Shown here: positions 4,647 through 4,727 of the stretch, piece after piece
How the letters are laid out: every line of letters starts with the position of its first letter
Numbering within the stretch: position 1 is the first letter of the stretch
NCBI GenBank assembly: GCA_903884505.1
Contig: CAISET010000019.1
Location: 1 to 34,158, forward strand
Length of the DNA stretch: 34,158 nucleotides
Reading direction: 5' to 3'
From: an uncultured Microcaldota archaeon
GTDB taxonomy: Archaea > Micrarchaeota > Micrarchaeia > Burarchaeales > Fermentimicrarchaeaceae
Program-made: the position numbers and the translations under genes
The notes under the pieces: model-generated
Databases searched by the model: none
Seen by the model: the letters and a program-made list of their open reading frames with translations, nothing else
What the model was told of the DNA's origin: nothing

Positions 4647-4727
4647 GCCCGGGAAACCGCATCCTGCGGTCCGAGGCCCCCCAAGCTTCTGTTTCTCCCG
4701 GGCGGCGTTCTTTTAGGGGTGGTGTAG
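4647..4727 (+). ncRNA. Candidate cis-regulatory leader RNA (three-way junction), copy 1
   Basis: Three stems can be drawn. P1 pairs GCCCGGGA (4647-4654) with TCCCGGGC (4696-4703), 8 bp. P2 pairs ACCGC (4656-4660) with GCGGT (4666-4670). P3 pairs GAGGC (4673-4677) with GCTTC (4685-4689), one pair being G-U. The P3 loop is CCCCCAA (4678-4684). The ribosome site AGGGGTGGTG (4715-4724) contains GGGG, which could pair with that loop and hide the site. The same architecture recurs at 12030-12110 before a paralogous gene. No known riboswitch family was recognised; fold and function are inferences from two copies. Confidence 0.6.

What the first reader, a model, noticed from the sequence alone, without database searches (positions are those of the whole stretch)
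4647..4727. Candidate new leader RNA: three-way junction before a stand-alone RAM gene, with a second copy at 12030-12110
Two RAM genes about 7.4 kb apart share a leader that can fold the same way: a long P1 stem, a P2 hairpin and a P3 hairpin with a CCCC(C)AA loop. Between copies the P2 loop changes freely and P3 keeps pairing (G-U to A-U). In both, the P3 loop can pair with the GGGG of the ribosome site GGGGTGGT, a typical way to switch translation. The genes encode ligand-binding-domain proteins, so a feedback sensor for the same ligand is conceivable. I recognise no known riboswitch of this form. Caveat: the genes are paralogs, so some likeness is simply shared ancestry.
Basis: partly seen in the sequence, partly recalled or inferred. 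Interest (0 to 1): 0.82.

Follow-up and report, generated by a model that had tools for sequence, protein, structure and literature searches.

The report
Lineage-specific stem leader of RAM genes
In one family of tiny archaea (Micrarchaeota), small genes for lone amino-acid-sensor (RAM) domains begin their messages with a long RNA stem.

Summary
Both RAM genes have a leader that folds as P1 plus two inner hairpins (4642-4709, 12025-12090), and GGGGUGGU is a true ribosome site. I extend it: a third stand-alone RAM gene in the window (1548-1820, minus) also has a long stem, as does the orthologous gene in a second Micrarchaeota genome and a decayed duplicate there. The three RAM genes rank 1-3 of 30 window genes for long-range stem strength. 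Between the window copies the core is 82% identical, against 47% at synonymous sites, and similarity drops upstream of P1, so the leader is constrained as a unit. P1 has two both-sided pair changes and a compensatory pair deletion.

The riboswitch reading does not hold. P2, P3 and their loops are not kept in the sister genome. Covariance models of each version find only their own two copies in 301 Micrarchaeota genomes. The P3-loop/ribosome-site pairing is no better than in shuffled leaders. Nothing in Rfam matches.

Best reading: a lineage-specific 5'-terminal mRNA stem beside an open ribosome site, acting on message stability or translation, perhaps through a protein. A metabolite aptamer is possible but unsupported. 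Interest is modest.

The parts
4642..4709 (+). Leader 1 of RAM gene 1: P1 4642-4654/4696-4709 (G4704 bulged), P2 4657-4660/4666-4669, P3 4673-4677/4685-4689 with loop CCCCCAA 4678-4684
4716..4723 (+). Ribosome site GGGGUGGU (GAGGUGAU with two wobble changes), single-stranded in the predicted fold, 6 nt after P1
4728..5030 (+). Stand-alone RAM (Lrp/AsnC ligand-binding domain) gene 1, 100 aa
   Evidence: PF01037 E 3.9e-07, no HTH
12025..12090 (+). Leader 2: P1 12025-12037/12078-12090, P2 12040-12043/12048-12051, P3 12056-12060/12067-12071 with loop CCCCAA
12099..12106 (+). Ribosome site GGGGUGGU of RAM gene 2
12111..12404 (+). Stand-alone RAM gene 2, 97 aa, 85% identical to gene 1
   Evidence: PF01037 E 4.5e-08 (residues 2 onward)
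1850..1895 (-). Leader 3 (new): stem GGCGCGGG 1895-1888 / CUCGCGCC 1857-1850 enclosing hairpin GUCCG-UUCCCC-CGGGC 1879-1864
1825..1832 (-). Ribosome site GAGGUGAU, perfect match to the 16S tail
1548..1820 (-). Third stand-alone RAM-like gene, 91 aa from ATG 1820
   Evidence: PF01037 E 5.2e-04, below the curated cut-off; 38% identical to RAM gene 2, E 3.9e-9
3993..4547 (-). Divergent Lrp-type regulator (HTH plus weak RAM); the same divergent arrangement lies beside the RAM ortholog in G003/L010

Best explanation
The feature is the 5'-terminal part of the mRNA of stand-alone RAM genes in one Micrarchaeota family. Transcription probably starts just before P1, so the message begins with a long G+C-rich stem that ends 6-8 nt before the ribosome site in RAM genes 1 and 2 and leaves that site mostly single-stranded. 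Most likely it works after transcription: the stem shields the 5' end from 5'-3' decay and keeps the C-rich leader folded away from the ribosome site. In the window's lineage the conserved inner hairpins may also be the binding site of a protein, possibly the RAM protein itself. Shown by computation: the stem, its constraint, its covariation, its recurrence, and the mostly open ribosome site in the predicted fold. Inferred: the transcription start, the stability/translation role, any bound factor.
For: Long-range stem strength of the 88 nt upstream ranks 1, 2 and 3 of 30 window genes for the three RAM genes. Individually 2-33 of 500 dinucleotide shuffles do as well. P1 keeps 48 of 50 cells paired across four leaders from two genera, with two both-sided changes and a one-pair deletion on both arms. 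Sliding the arms (without the bulge correction) drops pairing from 45/50 to about half or less. The outer 5' arm of W1 pairs 5/5 with its own 3' arm but only 1/5 with those of W2 or G3A. Core identity W1/W2 is 45/55 against about 30/63 at synonymous sites (p 1e-4) and 19/33 at fourfold sites (p 0.025); upstream of P1 it is 27/61. TATA-like boxes lie 27-32 nt before P1 in W1, G3A and G3B. The ribosome site is largely unpaired in the predicted folds of W1 and W2.
Against: There are only five leaders, and two pairs of them are duplicates. The leaders are G+C-rich, which favours stems by chance: total folding energy is not exceptional, and per-leader stem p-values are 0.004-0.07. TATA scores are not significant in themselves, and leader 2 has no good TATA box. 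In one fold of leader 2, with the sequence cut at the ATG, a weak 5-bp hairpin touches the ribosome site. No transcript data exist. No other stand-alone RAM genes in the phylum share the leader. In leader 3 the linker to the ribosome site is longer (17 nt).
Confidence: 0.45

Rival explanations
1. Protein-binding leader: the RAM protein or another RNA-binding protein binds P2/P3 and controls translation, giving feedback on RAM dosage.
For: Inner hairpin letters are strongly conserved between W1 and W2 (17 identical bases CCCCCAAGCTTCTGTTT), above synonymous sites. The RAM N-termini are basic (RRKR, KKR). Duplicates keep the leader.
Against: The inner letters are not kept in G003 although the protein is 77% identical. 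RAM domains are known for amino-acid binding and oligomerisation (PMC2995911), not RNA binding.
Confidence: 0.22
2. Metabolite riboswitch: a three-way-junction aptamer whose P3 loop masks the GGGG of the ribosome site.
For: Fold and placement beside the ribosome site. CCCC/GGGG complementarity is present in both window copies. The inner junction strand J31 (6 nt) is longer than J23, which in the usual classification (from memory) tilts P3 toward P1.
Against: Loop/SD pairing is no better than in shuffles in W1, W2 and G3A. P2, P3 and junction letters are lost in the sister genome. No other copies in 301 genomes. No Rfam match.
Confidence: 0.1
3. DNA-level inverted repeat: the arms are operator half-sites of an Lrp-type regulator around the transcription start.
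For: The neighbouring divergent gene is an Lrp regulator. The arms are palindromic (CCCGGG) and flank the probable start.
Against: The outer arms changed on both sides together while the letters diverged, which favours pairing over a fixed protein-binding sequence. The third paralog has different letters.
Confidence: 0.13
4. No function: G+C-rich leaders folding by chance, with likeness from shared ancestry only.
For: Folding z-scores near zero. Very few independent sequences.
Against: Conservation above synonymous sites, compensatory changes, and rank 1-3 of 30 genes.
Confidence: 0.1

Closest known systems
5'-terminal stabilising stem-loops of mRNAs (e.g. the ompA 5' UTR; from general knowledge)
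   Same: A stable stem at the very 5' end just upstream of an accessible ribosome site
   Different: Archaeal, with a branched interior; no stability data
Autogenous translational leaders (e.g. ribosomal-protein mRNA leaders; from general knowledge)
   Same: A structured leader in front of the gene of a small protein
   Different: No rRNA mimicry was examined; RAM is not a known RNA binder
Three-way-junction riboswitches (purine-type layout; from general knowledge)
   Same: P1 with two hairpins upstream of an expression platform
   Different: No conserved core, no loop pairing above chance, no distribution beyond two genera
Rfam Pab160 (archaeal H/ACA RNA)
   Same: Weak match to P1 and GAAACCGC (15.1 bits against a gathering score of 47.4)
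   Different: E 4.1; no ACA box after the stem

Membership tests
Riboswitch | Conserved aptamer core letters across genera | tested here: not met
   Only P1 is retained in G003; R1 finds 2 copies and R2 finds 2 copies, each in its own genome only
Riboswitch | Covariation supporting the helices | tested here: inconclusive
   P1: two both-sided columns and a pair deletion; P2 never varies and P3 has one one-sided change
Riboswitch | Alternative pairing that controls the ribosome site | tested here: inconclusive
   CCCC/GGGG is possible but at chance level
Riboswitch | Specific ligand binding | not testable with these tools
   Needs probing or ITC
Any of 4227 Rfam families | Score above the gathering threshold | tested here: not met
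5'-terminal stabilising stem | Stem at the transcript's 5' end, ribosome site open | tested here: inconclusive
   TATA-like boxes 27-32 nt before P1 in three of five leaders; ribosome site largely unpaired in the W1/W2 fold; no transcript ends available
5'-terminal stabilising stem | Stem raises mRNA half-life | not testable with these tools
   Needs decay assays
Autogenous protein-binding leader | The encoded protein binds the leader | not testable with these tools
   Needs gel shift
Stand-alone RAM protein | Lrp/AsnC ligand-binding domain without HTH | tested here: met
   for genes 1 and 2; the third gene is below the curated cut-off

The most novel reading that the evidence does not exclude
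A fast-evolving cis-acting RNA in Micrarchaeota that binds the RAM protein or its amino acid and switches RAM translation, keeping the outer clamp while the sensor interior is rebuilt between genera.
Probability: 0.12. Interest if true: 0.7.

Novelty: new member of a known kind. Interest (0 to 1): 0.33.

Why it matters
Structured mRNA leaders are little known in DPANN archaea: a full-text search for Micrarchaeota and riboswitch in the held library returned no paper. If it works, it would be a post-transcriptional control point on stand-alone RAM proteins, whose role is still unclear and which may retune Lrp regulators by forming mixed oligomers (PMC2995911). As it stands it is a lineage-specific leader, not a new riboswitch class.

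Tried and rejected
(1) Coding leader: rejected, because gene 1 has a TAG stop directly before its ATG, although frame 2 is open through leader 2. (2) Known RNA family: none; Pab160 and the others are chance-level. (3) Wider distribution: R1 and R2 over 301 Micrarchaeota genomes, RAM loci across the phylum, viral contigs; the 19 viral pattern matches score no better than E 0.15 with R1. (4) Shared structured leaders at other Micrarchaeota stand-alone RAM genes: a few stems (L019, L030, L037), but no shared element and unclear promoter positions. (5) Loop/SD pseudoknot as a conserved feature: G3A has CCUGG/CCAGG, but 241 of 500 shuffles do as well. (6) Integron attC: the R core sites do not fit on inspection.

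Full report
What was checked. The window is contig C19 of a 1.5 Mb genome. Its RAM ortholog lies in an uncultured Micrarchaeota genome from Alinen sediments of the same family, so the window is from Micrarchaeota. Both RAM genes carry PF01037 and no HTH. Their leaders fold as described: P1, P2, P3 in a three-way junction. P1 of copy 1 begins at 4642, slightly before the reported start. The 16S tail of this genome reads GAUCACCUCCU, and GGGGUGGU pairs with it over 8 bp with two wobbles.

More than chance? Total folding energy is ordinary (z -0.43, -0.91). The long-range stem is stronger than most shuffles: 16, 2, 25, 33 and 26 of 500 do as well for W1, W2, G3A, G3B and W3. Against 30 genes of the window, the three RAM genes rank first, second and third. 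Leader 3 was noticed before that ranking was made and W1/W2 are paralogs, so this is good but not independent evidence.

Conservation. Between W1 and W2 the coding dS is 0.93. The leader core is 45/55 identical, against about 30/63 unchanged synonymous sites (p 1e-4) and 19/33 fourfold sites (p 0.025). Upstream of P1 identity falls to 27/61. The leader is therefore kept as a unit, and the boundary falls at the start of P1.

Relatives. In G003 the ortholog has a 59-nt leader (L010 1078-1136), and a second leader (294-352) sits before a RAM remnant. P1 is kept by pairing rather than by letters: across four leaders 48/50 cells pair in a hand-made alignment, with two columns of both-sided change (A-U/G-C) and one pair deleted on both arms. 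The inner hairpins differ in letters, though the predicted G3A fold is again three-way. Model R1 from the window copies finds only those two in 301 genomes of the phylum. Model R2 from the G003 copies finds only its own two and does not recognise the window copies.

The proposed switch. The duplex between the inner leader and the ribosome-site region is no better than for shuffled inner segments: 160, 161 and 241 of 500 in W1, W2 and G3A. It reflects C-rich loops meeting a G-rich ribosome site. It is not excluded, but it is not evidence.

Third paralog. The RAM-like gene at 1548-1820 (minus) has a perfect ribosome site GAGGUGAU and a leader with an 8-bp stem enclosing one hairpin with loop UUCCCC. 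Only the outer-stem arrangement is shared.

Interpretation. What is common to the five leaders is a long stem before an accessible ribosome site (for the decayed G003 copy, the stem only), probably at the 5' end of the message: TATA-like boxes lie 27-32 nt before P1 in three leaders, are weak in the others, and are individually not significant. That fits an mRNA-protecting or site-exposing stem best, with a protein-binding leader as the main rival. A riboswitch would be expected to keep its core, and here the core letters changed between genera. Leader letters are conserved inside the window lineage, so some specific contact there remains possible.

Limits. There are five sequences from two genera, metagenomes could not be scanned, and no transcript or probing data exist. 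The P1 alignment was made by hand from the structure.

Noticed in passing
   Followed up: yes
L010 285-441: Decayed duplicate RAM gene in the sister genome: leader intact, coding part reduced to a C-terminal remnant.
   Followed up: partly
11982-11998 and 12731-12747: A 17-nt near-repeat CCTGAAATGGGATRTTC lies upstream of RAM gene 2 and upstream of the next gene (12756).
   Followed up: no
2024-12404: Dense cluster of regulators: a double-HTH Lrp-like protein, an Lrp, three HTH_10 proteins and two RAM proteins (a third RAM-like gene just outside at 1548-1820), with an EamA transporter.
   Followed up: no
G000 C29:3949-6110: The 16S gene spans 2162 bases against 1478 model positions, suggesting an insertion or intron of about 0.7 kb.
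   Followed up: no
L030, upstream of a RAM gene: Strong hairpin CTGGCGCACAG/CTGTGCGCCAG with a C-rich loop (z -4.2) before a distant stand-alone RAM gene; it may be independent.
   Followed up: partly
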